Origin: Sulfurihydrogenibium sp. YO3AOP1
GTDB lineage: Bacteria; Aquificota; Aquificia; Aquificales; Hydrogenothermaceae
Assembly (NCBI RefSeq): GCF_000020325.1
Contig: NC_010730.1
Span: 1,075,501 to 1,139,500 of the forward strand
Direction of reading: 5' to 3'
DNA: 64,000 nt
Shown: one piece after another, positions 35,083 through 59,150 of the stretch
How the letters are laid out: the number at the start of each line of letters is the position of its first letter
Numbering within the stretch: position 1 is the stretch's first letter
Notes under the pieces: model-generated
The model's input: the letters and a program-made list of their open reading frames with translations, nothing else
Database searches by the model: none
What the model was told of the DNA's origin: nothing
Program-made: the position numbers and the translations under genes

Positions 35083-35370
35083 GTTAATCCCCCAAAAATT
35101 ATTCATAATAATTATATACATATAAATTATAGAAAAATTAGAAAATATATTAAACCCAAATTACTATATTATCAAGATAATGTATAAGTTATAGCAGTTT
35201 GGGAAAATTAAAAAAATGAAGAAAACTATGAGACTTTTCAGTTTGTTGCTTACTGACAAAGCTCCTCAACGGTGTCATTCTGAGCGAAGCGAAGAATCTC
35301 CTGTTTTCTCTATTATTTCTTTCAAACAAATAACATTAAAAAAGAGATCCTTCGGCTTTGCAGCCTCAGA
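35083..35370. repeat. Hairpin modules at the left border of the IS110 element
   Basis: Module B at 35273-35301 (TGTCATTCTGAGCGAAGCG) and a module A starting at 35343 (inner stem GGCTTTGCAGCC), which is interrupted at its end TCAGA|ATG by the IS110 element at 35371. The first 190 bases hold nothing I recognise. Confidence 0.8.
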
Positions 35371-35791
35371 ATGTTCTATGTTAAATGTCAAGTACAAAAA
35401 TTTTCATCAAATGGTCTTCTGCTTTTTAATACACCATATGCTTGCCTTAATAACTTATGTGCTACAGCTACTAATGCTAACTTTTTAGCCTTACCTTTAC
35501 TTACTAACCTCTCGTATAATTCTCTGCAGTATTTGTTAAACCTTATTGCTGATAATGCTGCCATGTATAGTATCTTCCTTGTATATGGACTTCCCATCTT
35601 CTTTATCCAGCCACTTTTCTTTACACTCGTTCCACTTTCATGTATACCCGGACTGATTCCTATAAAACTTGATGCATCTTTTACACTCTTAAATCTTTCA
35701 AAATTTCCATATACTGATATTATCATTCCTATAGTCCTATCACTTATACCGGGTATACTTTTTAAAAGTTTATACTCTTCTTGATAATTCT

Positions 35792-35799
35792 TCTTAGAC
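35792..35799. repeat. Target-site duplication of the IS256 copy, left
   Basis: TCTTAGAC, identical to 36987-36994 on the other side of the IS256 element. Confidence 0.9.
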
Positions 35800-36986
35800 G
35801 GGAGTTAAAATAATGTTGTGTCTAAATAAAATTATAAGGAGGAGTAGTAATGAATAAAAAAGAATACTTTGAAAAAGTGTTAGACAGATCAACTGAAGAA
35901 TTAGTAAAAGAACTTTTCCCAAACGGTATAACAACTCAAGAAAAGATAGGTATAAGAAAACTTTTAGAATCTGTTGTGGAACTGATTATGAATCAGGAAA
36001 GAAATTTCTTCCTTGAAAATGATAAAGACAACAAAGCAAATGGATATTATGAAAGAAGCCTAAATACTGGTTCTTTCAAGCTTAACATAAATGTTTCAAG
36101 AGATAGAAAGGGTAAATTTAGACCACAAATATTACCTGACCCTTACAAAAGAGTTGATGAAGATTATATAGACCTTCTTATGAGTTTGGTATCCAATGGA
36201 TACTCAGAAAGCAAGATAGATTCTACATTAAAAAGCTTGGGCTTAAACTACTCAAAACAACATATGGATAAAATCAAAAAAGAGCTTATAGAAAGACTTA
36301 ATGATTTTAAAACAAGAGAGCTTCCATCGGATGCATTTGTACTGTATATAGATGCATACCACTGTGATATAAAAGAGAAAAACAAAATCAGAAAAGCTTC
36401 TGTCTATGTAGTTCTTGGAGTGGACTTACAAGGAAATAAAGATATATTTGGATTTTATACATTTTTCAGTAGTGAAAACAAAGCAGACTGGATAAAAGTA
36501 TTCAATGATTTAATAGATAGAGGACTAAAAAGAGTAATGCTTATAGTAAGTGATGATTTTCCTGGGATAACAAAAGCCATAGAAACACTATTTCCTTATA
36601 CAGACCATCAGCTATGTTTAGCCCATTTACAAAGAAACGTTAGAAATCAGATGGATAAAGAAGATTCACAAGTATTTAACAAAGAATTAAAAAACATAAA
36701 AGAAAACAGCTTAGATTATGAAGATGGATTAGAAAAATTAGATGACTTATGTAGCAAAAAATACAGTGGAAAGTGTTAATAGTACGATAGAGAAAGTAAG
36801 AATAAATTTAGGTGGATATTTTCAATCTGTGGACATTCTTGAGATAAATCTGCTTATACAAAGAGACAATTTAAAGAATGGAAAATGGAAAAAGCCTATA
36901 CCTGCTTTTAAAGGAGTCTCTTATGAAATTTTACAATTGTTTAATAAAAAGTTTTCAATCCAGACACAAAATTATTGACAAGTCTC
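35800..36986 (+). mobile_element. IS256-family insertion sequence, internally deleted
   Basis: 1187 bp, bounded by the 8-bp direct repeat TCTTAGAC. The ends are imperfect inverted repeats: GGGAGTTAAAATAATGTTGT at the left and, read from the right end, GAGACTTGTCAATAATTTTG; both continue into GTGTCT. It carries one broken transposase gene. Removing it with one repeat copy joins the IS110 transposase frame exactly. Confidence 0.92.
35850..36978 (+). pseudogene. IS256-family (Mutator-type) transposase, deletion and frameshift
   Basis: The first 304 or so codons from the ATG at 35850 (AGGAGGAG upstream) give a normal N-terminal and catalytic start: the first Asp is in VLYIDAYHCD, the second in LIVSDDFPGI, and DHQLCLAHLQRNVRNQM is the family block. 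After LEKLDDLC the sequence jumps, out of frame, to KNTVESVNSTIEKVRINLGG, which contains the expected catalytic Glu and runs to 36978. About 40-50 residues of the usual protein are missing at the join. The copy cannot encode an intact transposase; it might be mobilised by an intact relative elsewhere. Confidence 0.92.
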
Positions 36987-36994
36987 TCTTAGAC
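36987..36994. repeat. Target-site duplication of the IS256 copy, right
   Basis: TCTTAGAC, matching 35792-35799; it lies within the IS110 transposase reading frame. Confidence 0.9.
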
Positions 36995-37499
36995 AATTCT
37001 TTTATCTCTTTCTCAAGTTCTTTTATGTTCTTTTCTATTTTTCTGATTATCTCATCATAATATTCCAAGTTCTCTTTCAATTTTTTCATGGTACATGACT
37101 TAATGATTCTCTTTGATTTCTTAGCATTGTAAGCTGTTTTTGTAGGTCTTCCAATATCTTTAGTTTTACTTCTATTTCTTTTTCTACATCTGATTTTGGT
37201 TTATAAAGCTCTCCATCAAAAAACATTCTTCCATATTCTGCTGTTGTAGTATGAATCAGCTTTATCTGTTTTTACTCCCGCATGTTCCATTATGATAAGC
37301 ATATCTGACTGCTTAAACTTCTTCAAAAATGGCTTTATTTTCATTTCAAACTCTACCGGGTCTGATTTAACTTCAAAATTTTCTTTCTTGTTATCATACA
37401 AAACTGTAGCAGTGAATGAGTTTTTAGATACATCAACTCCTATAACAATTTTGTAGTTATTCATATGAGCACCTCCTTTTTTAAAATACTTGACATGAA

Positions 37500-37665
37500 A
37501 GAACTTCCTGATAACCTATCATCGTGGTTAAATACAGGCTTAAAAGCCTAATGTTCTTACTGCAGGTTTTAGGAAGTAGAGGAAGGACAGTCTAAAACAT
37601 TCTGATCGGTCTTAAAAGACAAATGACAGTCACTTGATCTGTCCTTCCATTTTTCTCCCATGTCT
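37500..37665 (-). ncRNA. Candidate IS110 bridge RNA with target- and donor-binding loops
   Basis: Transcribed from the left end of the IS110 element toward the transposase. First loop: a 10-bp stem GGAAGGACAG/CTGTCCTTCC (37639-37648 with 37581-37590), symmetrical 18-base internal loops, and an apical hairpin GTCTT-TT-AAGAC (37609-37620). Its left side contains TGTCATT (37622-37628) and its right side encodes the complement of CATTCTGA (37598-37605). Together they specify TGTCATTCTGA, the hairpin-repeat sequence. Second loop: stem ACTTCCT/AGGAAGT plus AACC/GGTT (37503-37577), apical AGGCTT-TT-AAGCCT (37536-37549). Its left side AGAACAT (37551-37557) equals the element's right end, and its right side ACGATG pairs with the left end CATCGT. 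Predicted length of about 165 bases is close to the IS621 bridge RNA. Confidence 0.82.
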
Positions 37666-37671
37666 ATAATT

Positions 37672-37700
37672 ATTATAAAACTTATTCTCTTATAGTTTAA
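37672..37700 (-). promoter_or_regulatory. Promoter candidate for the bridge RNA
   Basis: Minus strand -35 TTAAAC (37695-37700), 17-base spacer, perfect -10 TATAAT (37672-37677). Start expected near 37665, just before the first RNA stem. Confidence 0.6.
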
Positions 37701-37730
37701 AAAAATTTTTAGTATATTTAATATACGATG

Positions 37731-38075
37731 ACCAGGAAGAAACAATATTCCTCGGACTTTCATACTCGGTATGACAAAAAACCTACCAATGGTGTCATTC
37801 TGAGCGTAAGCGAAGAATCTCCTGTTTTTCTTTTCAAAACACTTAAGTAAGGGTTCCTTCAGCCTTCTGCTTAAGGATGGCGGGCAAAGGTAAAGTTATA
37901 TTTACATATACACTCTACAGCTTACAAAAGTTTTAGAATACCCTCACAGGCATATTGACTTATGATGAACAAGATTATGAGTAATATAGAAATTAAAAAT
38001 GTGGCAAGTAATATATGATGTTTAAGAGATTTTAAAATACCCTTTACGCTCTAACTTTCTTACATCTTTTAAAAT
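37731..38075. repeat. Hairpin modules right of the IS110 element
   Basis: A decayed module A (ATTCCTCGGACTTTCATACT, 37747-37775), module B 37793-37822 (TGTCATTCTGAGCGTAAGCG), a decayed module A 37851-37882, and a type-2 end around 37921-37947 (AAAGTTTTAGAATACCC). The rest up to the glnA terminator is AT-rich without features I recognise. Confidence 0.7.
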
Positions 38076-44751: not shown

Positions 44752-44780
44752 GGATGTAATAAGTTAGTATTTATTAACCT
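44752..44780. repeat. Left direct repeat flanking a type-1 MITE-like element (includes operator copy)
   Basis: 29 bases nearly identical to 44961-44990 (two substitutions and one gap). It contains GTTAGTATTTATTAAC at 44763-44778. Confidence 0.8.
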
Positions 44781-44960
44781 ATACCTTGGGTGAGAAATTA
44801 GTGGTTTTTATAGAATTTAAAAAGGAGATCCTTCGGACTTACGTCCTCAGGATGACAGCGAAAGACTGATTGATAAACATTAAAGGAAGGATAACATAAG
44901 ATGTCATTCTGAGCGAAGCGAAGAATCTCCTACTTTTACTGAATTTCTCACCTGACGTAT
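44781..44960. repeat. MITE-like element, type 1, complete, with long direct repeats
   Basis: 180 bp. The left end is ATACCTTGGGTGAGAAATT (44781-44799) and the right end AATTTCTCACCTGACGTAT (44942-44960). Module A is at 44823-44856 and module B at 44902-44930. It is flanked by direct repeats of 29-30 bp. Confidence 0.88.
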
Positions 44961-58898: not shown

Positions 58899-59101
58899 AT
58901 GGAAATACTTTTAGAGATGCAGTGAAAGATTACATAGTTTTACGCAGAAATGGAAAATTCTTAGAAATAAAATGTAAGTATAAAGAATTGCTTAAAAATG
59001 CCTTGAGTGAGAAATTGGCGATTATTGTAGAATTTAAAAATAAGATCCTTCGGCCTTACGGCCTCAGGATGACAAAGAACGACCCAATGGTGTCATTCTG
59101 A
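58895..59101 (+). CDS. Small gene whose 3' end is replaced by a MITE-like element
   Basis: An ATG overlapping the methylase stop (ATGA) starts a 68-residue frame. The first 35 or so residues (NTFRDAVKDYIVLRRNGKFL) look coding. From 59003 on, the frame reads through the repeat element. The direct repeat right of the element (59151-59178) continues as a possible original C terminus, KCKFKNWLKMF then stop, close in sequence to KCKYKELLKNAL at the left. It seems the insertion split the original gene end. Function unknown. Confidence 0.55.
   Translation: MNGNTFRDAVKDYIVLRRNGKFLEIKCKYKELLKNALSEKLAIIVEFKNKILRPYGLRMTKNDPMVSF
58969..58997. repeat. Left direct repeat flanking a type-1 MITE-like element
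   Basis: 29 bases matching 59151-59178 at about 24 positions with one gap. Confidence 0.72.
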
Positions 59102-59150
59102 GCGTAAGCGAAGAATCTCCTATTTTTATTGAATTTCTCACTCAACGTAT
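58998..59150. repeat. MITE-like element, type 1, with long direct repeats
   Basis: 153 bp. The left end is ATGCCTTGAGTGAGAAATT and the right end AATTTCTCACTCAACGTAT, a good inverted match. Module A is at 59042-59073 (inner stem GGCCTTACGGCC) and module B at 59091-59120 (GAGCGTAAGCG). Confidence 0.88.

What the first reader, a model, noticed from the sequence alone, without database searches (positions are those of the whole stretch)
37500..37665. Bridge RNA whose target loop spells the genome's own dispersed hairpin repeat
Upstream of a dead IS110 transposase is an RNA with two stem-loops, each with a long stem, wide internal loops and a small apical hairpin, as known for IS110 bridge RNAs. 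The first loop carries TGTCATT on one side and the complement of CATTCTGA on the other; merged they read TGTCATTCTGA, the start of hairpin module B found many times in this window. The second loop carries AGAACAT, equal to the right end (35371-35377), and a segment pairing with CATCGT at the left end. Four guide segments match the observed junctions, with a shared CAT core. This resembles IS621 targeting REP elements in E. coli, but here in an Aquificota with an unrelated repeat.
Basis: partly seen in the sequence, partly recalled or inferred. Interest (0 to 1): 0.95.

Follow-up and report, generated by a model that had tools for sequence, protein, structure and literature searches.

The report
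Jumping gene guided to REP hairpins
A bacterial jumping gene (an IS110 element) from a hot-spring Sulfurihydrogenibium carries a guide RNA whose target loop spells the start of a short hairpin repeat present about 300 times in the same genome, and all but a few degenerate copies of the element that could be checked, in three related genomes, sit at that spot; this is a well-supported new case of a recently discovered mechanism.

Summary
The finding holds up. The window's dead IS110 copy (left end near 37732, right end 35371, minus strand) is one of about 20 in this genome, with many more in two sister Sulfurihydrogenibium genomes. Nearly all of about 50 left ends follow GTCAT and nearly all of about 60 right ends precede YCTGA, in different surroundings; the exceptions are a few degenerate copies. 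The target is TGTCAT|YCTGAG, the head of the dispersed hairpin (294 intact copies here). The left-end RNA folds into two stem-loops: loop 1 matches both target strands, loop 2 matches the element's own right and left ends, and segments fitting IS621-type handshake pairing are present. Natural variation supports guiding: S. yellowstonense copies carry A in the right guide and sit in T sites (12 of 13); the other two genomes mostly carry G and sit mostly in C sites (34 of 46; P = 2e-5). The transposase is homologous to IS621 over its full length. The repeat fits the TGTC/CGTC-tagged REP superfamily, and some head-to-head dimers ride on a MITE-like unit sharing ends with an IS982-like element. 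New member of a known kind; no expression or activity data.

The parts
35371..37732 (-). IS110 element, window copy, left end to right end, interrupted by another IS
   Evidence: Aligned with about 20 copies in the genome; ends fixed by where similarity stops and flanks differ
37488..37660 (-). predicted bridge RNA (two stem-loops; true 5' and 3' ends unknown)
   Evidence: MFE -49.2 kcal/mol, z -3.3; two-loop fold conserved
37622..37628 (-). left target guide TGTCATT (may extend about 3 nt upstream)
   Evidence: Matches the left target; the three nucleotides upstream match the cognate flank more than permuted pairs, P = 0.006
37598..37605 (-). right target guide TCAGAATG, complement of CATTCTGA
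   Evidence: Perfect match to the window's own right target; A/G variation follows the T/C of occupied sites between genomes
37596..37598 (-). possible handshake guide of the target loop (GUU pairs donor AAC)
   Evidence: Read from the sequence by analogy with IS621 (PMC11208158); not tested
37551..37557 (-). left donor guide AGAACAT
   Evidence: Identical to the right end at 35371-35377; nearly invariant in copies
37520..37525 (-). right donor guide ACGATG, complement of CATCGT at the left end
   Evidence: Sequence; nearly invariant in copies
37517..37520 (-). possible handshake guide of the donor loop (GAUA pairs target TGTC with one G-U)
   Evidence: Read from the sequence by analogy with IS621 (PMC11208158); not tested
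37086..37464 (-). remnants of the N-terminal half of the IS110 transposase (two short ORFs)
   Evidence: DNA aligned to intact copies
35388..35726 (-). C-terminal part of the IS110 transposase (PF02371)
35850..36779 (+). Mutator/IS256-type transposase gene of the IS that interrupts the element
   Evidence: PF00872, E = 3e-55
37728..37734 (-). left junction: GT of the target, then core CAT, then the left end CGTATATT
35344..35373 (-). right junction: core CAT, then TCTGAGGCTGCAAAGCCGAAGGATCTC, the rest of the split hairpin
44780..44960 (.). example of an intact head-to-head REP dimer inside a MITE-like unit with terminal inverted repeats and a long flanking direct repeat

Best explanation
The feature is the bridge RNA of an IS110-family insertion sequence. 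It is encoded in the left end, on the transposase strand, upstream of the gene. Its first loop pairs with both strands of the target TGTCAT-YCTGA, which is the unpaired tag and first stem bases of a TGTC-tagged REP-like hairpin; its second loop pairs with the right-end/left-end junction of the excised circle (AGAACAT-CGTATATT). The DEDD/serine recombinase then joins the two at the AT core, so each copy splits a hairpin as GTCAT|YCTGAG. Shown: the insertion site, the four guide matches, the conserved fold, homology to IS621, and covariation of guide and occupied sites between genomes. Inferred: expression of the RNA, the circular intermediate, handshake pairing and catalysis.
For: Nearly all junctions in three genomes are GTCAT/YCTGA with different flanks; the exceptions are degenerate or rearranged copies. 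Four ordered guide matches, 0 of 20000 shuffles. Occupied sites C:T = 19:7 and 15:5 in the two genomes with mostly G guides but 1:12 in the genome with A guides, against unoccupied pools of 158:136, 82:126 and 125:114 (P = 0.07, 0.004, 0.003; between genomes 2e-5). Left guides match their own flanks better than permuted ones (P = 0.006). Target-loop guides vary while donor-loop guides are nearly invariant. Homology to the IS621 transposase over nearly the full length, E = 5e-37; NCBIfam IS110 family RNA-guided transposase, 206.8 bits. The IS110 occurs only in the three of seven genus genomes that carry hundreds of the hairpins.
Against: No RNA-seq or activity data. No Rfam match. No compensatory base changes in the stems. 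Copies with a TGTAGAATG loop and a known right flank sit in C sites in 4 of 5 cases in this genome, so pairing within single copies is not significant (P = 0.12). Related copies are not independent, so the P values are optimistic. A divergent left end (L096) fits neither target nor donor guides.
Confidence: 0.93

Rival explanations
1. The transposase itself recognises the hairpin shape or sequence, and the matches in the left-end RNA are incidental or regulatory (a 5' UTR structure or sRNA as reported for ISPpu9).
For: The target is a hairpin; ISPpu9 has regulatory sRNAs around its transposase gene (PMC8450116, abstract listed).
Against: Both strands of target and donor are matched in bridge-RNA order; the guide base follows the occupied sites between genomes; the closest solved relatives are the IS110-type transposases IS621 and ISCro4, and IS621 is shown to be RNA-guided (PMC11208160, PMC11208158).
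Confidence: 0.04
2. The IS110 copies spread passively inside the MITE-like repeat units, so the constant junction reflects descent from few insertions and not target choice.
For: Several copies lie inside MITE-like units, and some flanks are similar to one another.
Against: Flanks differ widely, with both GTCAT|CCTGAG and GTCAT|TCTGAG and different apical loops; only a few pairs of right flanks are alike beyond the hairpin; hairpins without the terminal repeats are occupied too.
Confidence: 0.03

Closest known systems
IS621 and its bridge RNA (E. coli; PMC11208160, PMC11208158)
   Same: Homologous transposase, RNA in the left end, target loop before donor loop, left guide of about 9 nt including the core, segments that fit handshake pairing, insertion into an abundant REP
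   Different: AT core in place of CT; a TGTC-tagged repeat in place of the E. coli REP; a hot-spring Aquificota host; no activity shown
REP-targeting IS110 elements ISPpu9, ISPpu10, ISPa11, ISRm19 (PMC1525189)
   Same: IS110-family elements inserted into REPs of their host
   Different: Different repeats and hosts; guide RNAs were not known when they were described
CGTC-tagged REP superfamily (PMC3733652), for the target repeat
   Same: Unpaired TGTC tag, stem beginning with AT, nine pairs and a 4-nt loop in the C-type hairpin, head-to-head dimers, hundreds of copies
   Different: GA/GA internal loop, tail CTC and not CCA, a phylum not listed there, tail-to-tail neighbours as common as head-to-head, and dimers partly carried on a unit with terminal repeats

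Membership tests
IS110 family with left-end bridge RNA | DEDD RuvC-like N-terminal domain and Transposase_20 C-terminal domain in intact copies | tested here: met
   PF01548 81.3 bits, PF02371 78.6 bits
IS110 family with left-end bridge RNA | Catalytic D, E, D, D and S aligned with IS621 | tested here: met
   Alignment read against the residues named in PMC11208158
IS110 family with left-end bridge RNA | Long non-coding left end upstream of the gene, short right end | tested here: met
   About 250-270 nt before the start codon; 17 nt after the stop (read)
IS110 family with left-end bridge RNA | RNA with two internal loops, target before donor | tested here: met
IS110 family with left-end bridge RNA | Guides complementary to both strands of target and donor | tested here: met
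IS110 family with left-end bridge RNA | Compensatory changes supporting the stems | tested here: inconclusive
   No two-sided changes; copies too similar
IS110 family with left-end bridge RNA | Circular intermediate and transcribed RNA | not testable with these tools
   Needs PCR or RNA sequencing of living cells
CGTC/TGTC-tagged REP superfamily (target repeat) | Unpaired CGTC or TGTC tag at one end | tested here: met
   TGTC unpaired in the folds of two of three hairpins tried; criteria
CGTC/TGTC-tagged REP superfamily (target repeat) | 8-9 bp stem starting with AT, loop of 4-5 nt | tested here: inconclusive
   Met with a GA/GA internal loop in the C-type hairpin; weaker in the others
CGTC/TGTC-tagged REP superfamily (target repeat) | Head-to-head dimers predominant | tested here: not met
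   Head-to-head dimers are frequent but not predominant: 51 head-to-head and 52 tail-to-tail neighbours within 200 bp in the 464 kb examined

The most novel reading that the evidence does not exclude
Three mobile layers are stacked: an IS982-like element with unusually long target duplications (24 bp in the copy read) mobilises a 145-190 bp MITE carrying a head-to-head TGTC-tagged REP dimer, and the IS110 bridge RNA has adapted to the REP head spread by that MITE, its right guide shifting between species with the T or C form of the hairpin it exploits. This would give CGTC-type REPs a mobilising transposase, which they were said to lack (PMC3733652).
Probability: 0.5. Interest if true: 0.65.

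Novelty: new member of a known kind. Interest (0 to 1): 0.5.

Why it matters
It is an independent natural test of bridge-RNA guidance: many junctions, one element family, and a guide base that differs between sister genomes together with the sites they occupy. It extends REP-targeting IS110 elements to a hot-spring lineage, where a thermostable RNA-guided recombinase could be useful. The target repeat being carried partly on a MITE-like unit bears on the open question of how CGTC-type REPs spread.

Tried and rejected
Rfam searches gave nothing. A literature search for the repeat sequence gave nothing. Structural covariation was uninformative. Per-copy guide/target pairing was not significant, so only the genome-level test is relied on. 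The neighbourhood of the window copy in two sister genomes gave no clean empty site, nor did the L027 locus; the L016 locus showed an empty site, but one lacking the whole MITE-like unit and not only the IS110. The two IS110 relatives in G039 could not be used to infer guides. A chance-match reading was rejected on the shuffle test.

Full report
The window lies in a 1,838,442-base single-contig genome. By its nearest relatives, one of which is S. yellowstonense SS-5, it belongs to Sulfurihydrogenibium (Aquificota). PF01548 gives 20 matches in it.

Anatomy. The window copy runs on the minus strand from about 37732 (left end) to 35371 (right end). Its transposase is broken, and a Mutator/IS256-type transposase gene lies inside it at 35850-36779. 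Intact copies elsewhere encode 332-334 residues by the ORF search used, with PF01548 and PF02371, and match the IS621 transposase of PDB 8wt6 over nearly the full length, E = 5e-37. Length without nested insertions is about 1.27 kb.

Insertion site. The oriented copies of this genome begin after GTCAT, and where the right end was found it is AGAACAT (once AAAACAT) followed by YCTGA or, once, CCTTA. In two sister genomes the same holds for nearly all ends. The exceptions are degenerate or rearranged: left ends L096 and L126 (no GTCAT), L114 and L128 (GCCAT), L124 (GTCAT with a repeated CGT), and right flanks L091, L104 and L114 (a base lost or changed) and L137 (a repeated right end). Joining the flanks of the window copy gives GGTCATTCTGAGGCTGCAAAGCCGAAGGATCTC, one copy of the dispersed hairpin. 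The genome holds 294 intact GTCATYCTGAG and none of the reversed control; the two sister genomes hold 208 and 239, and four other genomes of the genus 0 or 1. The same four lack this IS110 (G099 has one weak 26-base match, and G102 has a distant IS110 relative at 32% identity).

Bridge RNA. The left-end strand folds at -49.2 kcal/mol, z = -3.3. Loop 1 holds TGTCATT and TCAGAATG; loop 2 holds AGAACAT and ACGATG. None of 20000 dinucleotide shuffles had the four in order. In 16 left ends from three genomes 95.8% of the pair cells form, with no two-sided changes, so the fold is conserved but not proven by covariation. Variation concentrates in the target loop; the donor-loop guides hardly vary. 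By analogy with IS621 (PMC11208158) the bases after the right target guide can pair with the donor, and those after the right donor guide with the target; this was read from the sequence and not tested.

Guide and target. Copies in this genome and in G101 mostly carry CAGGATG and sit mostly in C sites (19:7 and 15:5, C:T). S. yellowstonense copies carry an A at that position (CAGAATG or, once, TGTAGAATG; the divergent L096 apart) and sit in T sites (1:12). Unoccupied sites are 158:136, 82:126 and 125:114. Fisher P = 0.07, 0.004, 0.003, and 2e-5 between S. yellowstonense and the other two. The occupied counts were made by hand from the flanks, leaving out L091 and L104, where the base is ambiguous; in the two draft genomes most right ends could not be joined to their own left ends. 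Copy by copy the association is weak (P = 0.12), because four of five TGTAGAATG copies with a known right flank sit in C sites; mobilisation in trans by other copies' RNA is one possible reason. Left guides match their own flanks at the positions upstream of GTCAT more than permuted pairs (P = 0.006 for positions -2 to -4; several position sets were tried). Copies are related, so these P values are optimistic.

The repeat. C-type hairpins fold with an unpaired TGTC tag, a stem starting AT, nine pairs with a GA/GA internal loop and a four-base loop, which fits the TGTC form of the CGTC-tagged REPs of PMC3733652. In 464 kb (20 stretches that I chose, partly around known repeats, plus the window) 51 head-to-head and 52 tail-to-tail neighbours were found, and 15 of the 51 head-to-head dimers had the terminal repeat GGTGAGAAATT on both sides, against 4 of 52 tail-to-tail. 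An IS with the same terminal repeat encodes a 241-residue protein with a weak IS982 match, 34.8 bits against a cutoff of 130, and is flanked in one copy by a perfect 24-base direct repeat; several MITE-like units have long direct repeats too, but others show none above chance. At one locus both sister genomes lack the whole unit in which an IS110 copy sits here. This part is suggestive only.

Verdict. This is a well-supported new REP-targeting IS110 with a bridge RNA, in a hot-spring lineage. The mechanism was known; the natural guide variation and the partly MITE-borne target are the added value.

Noticed in passing
window 44780-44960, 58995-59150; L150 about 1498-2342: MITE-like units with terminal repeats ATACCTYGGGTGAGAAATT carry head-to-head REP dimers; an IS with a weak IS982-like transposase has the same ends and a perfect 24-base flanking repeat, long for IS982 as I know that family.
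   Followed up: partly
L187 and L188 compared with L016: In both sister genomes the orthologous intergenic site lacks the whole MITE-like unit; in this genome the unit is flanked by a direct repeat of about 15 bases and holds an IS110 copy.
   Followed up: partly
L011, L013, L014, L018, L019, L020, L028 and window 35800-36979: The same IS256-type element sits inside many IS110 copies, at several points within a stretch of about 50 bases and, in the window, at a different point.
   Followed up: no
L127: A solo fragment of about 60 bases of the left end lies directly between GTCAT and CCTGAG of a hairpin, as if most of the element had been deleted.
   Followed up: no
L096 (G103:C210:12985): A divergent left end (76% identical) whose target and donor guides fit neither its flank nor its ends.
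   Followed up: no
L014 and L022: Two distant copies share similar left flanks but have different right flanks, which suggests recombination between IS110 copies.
   Followed up: no
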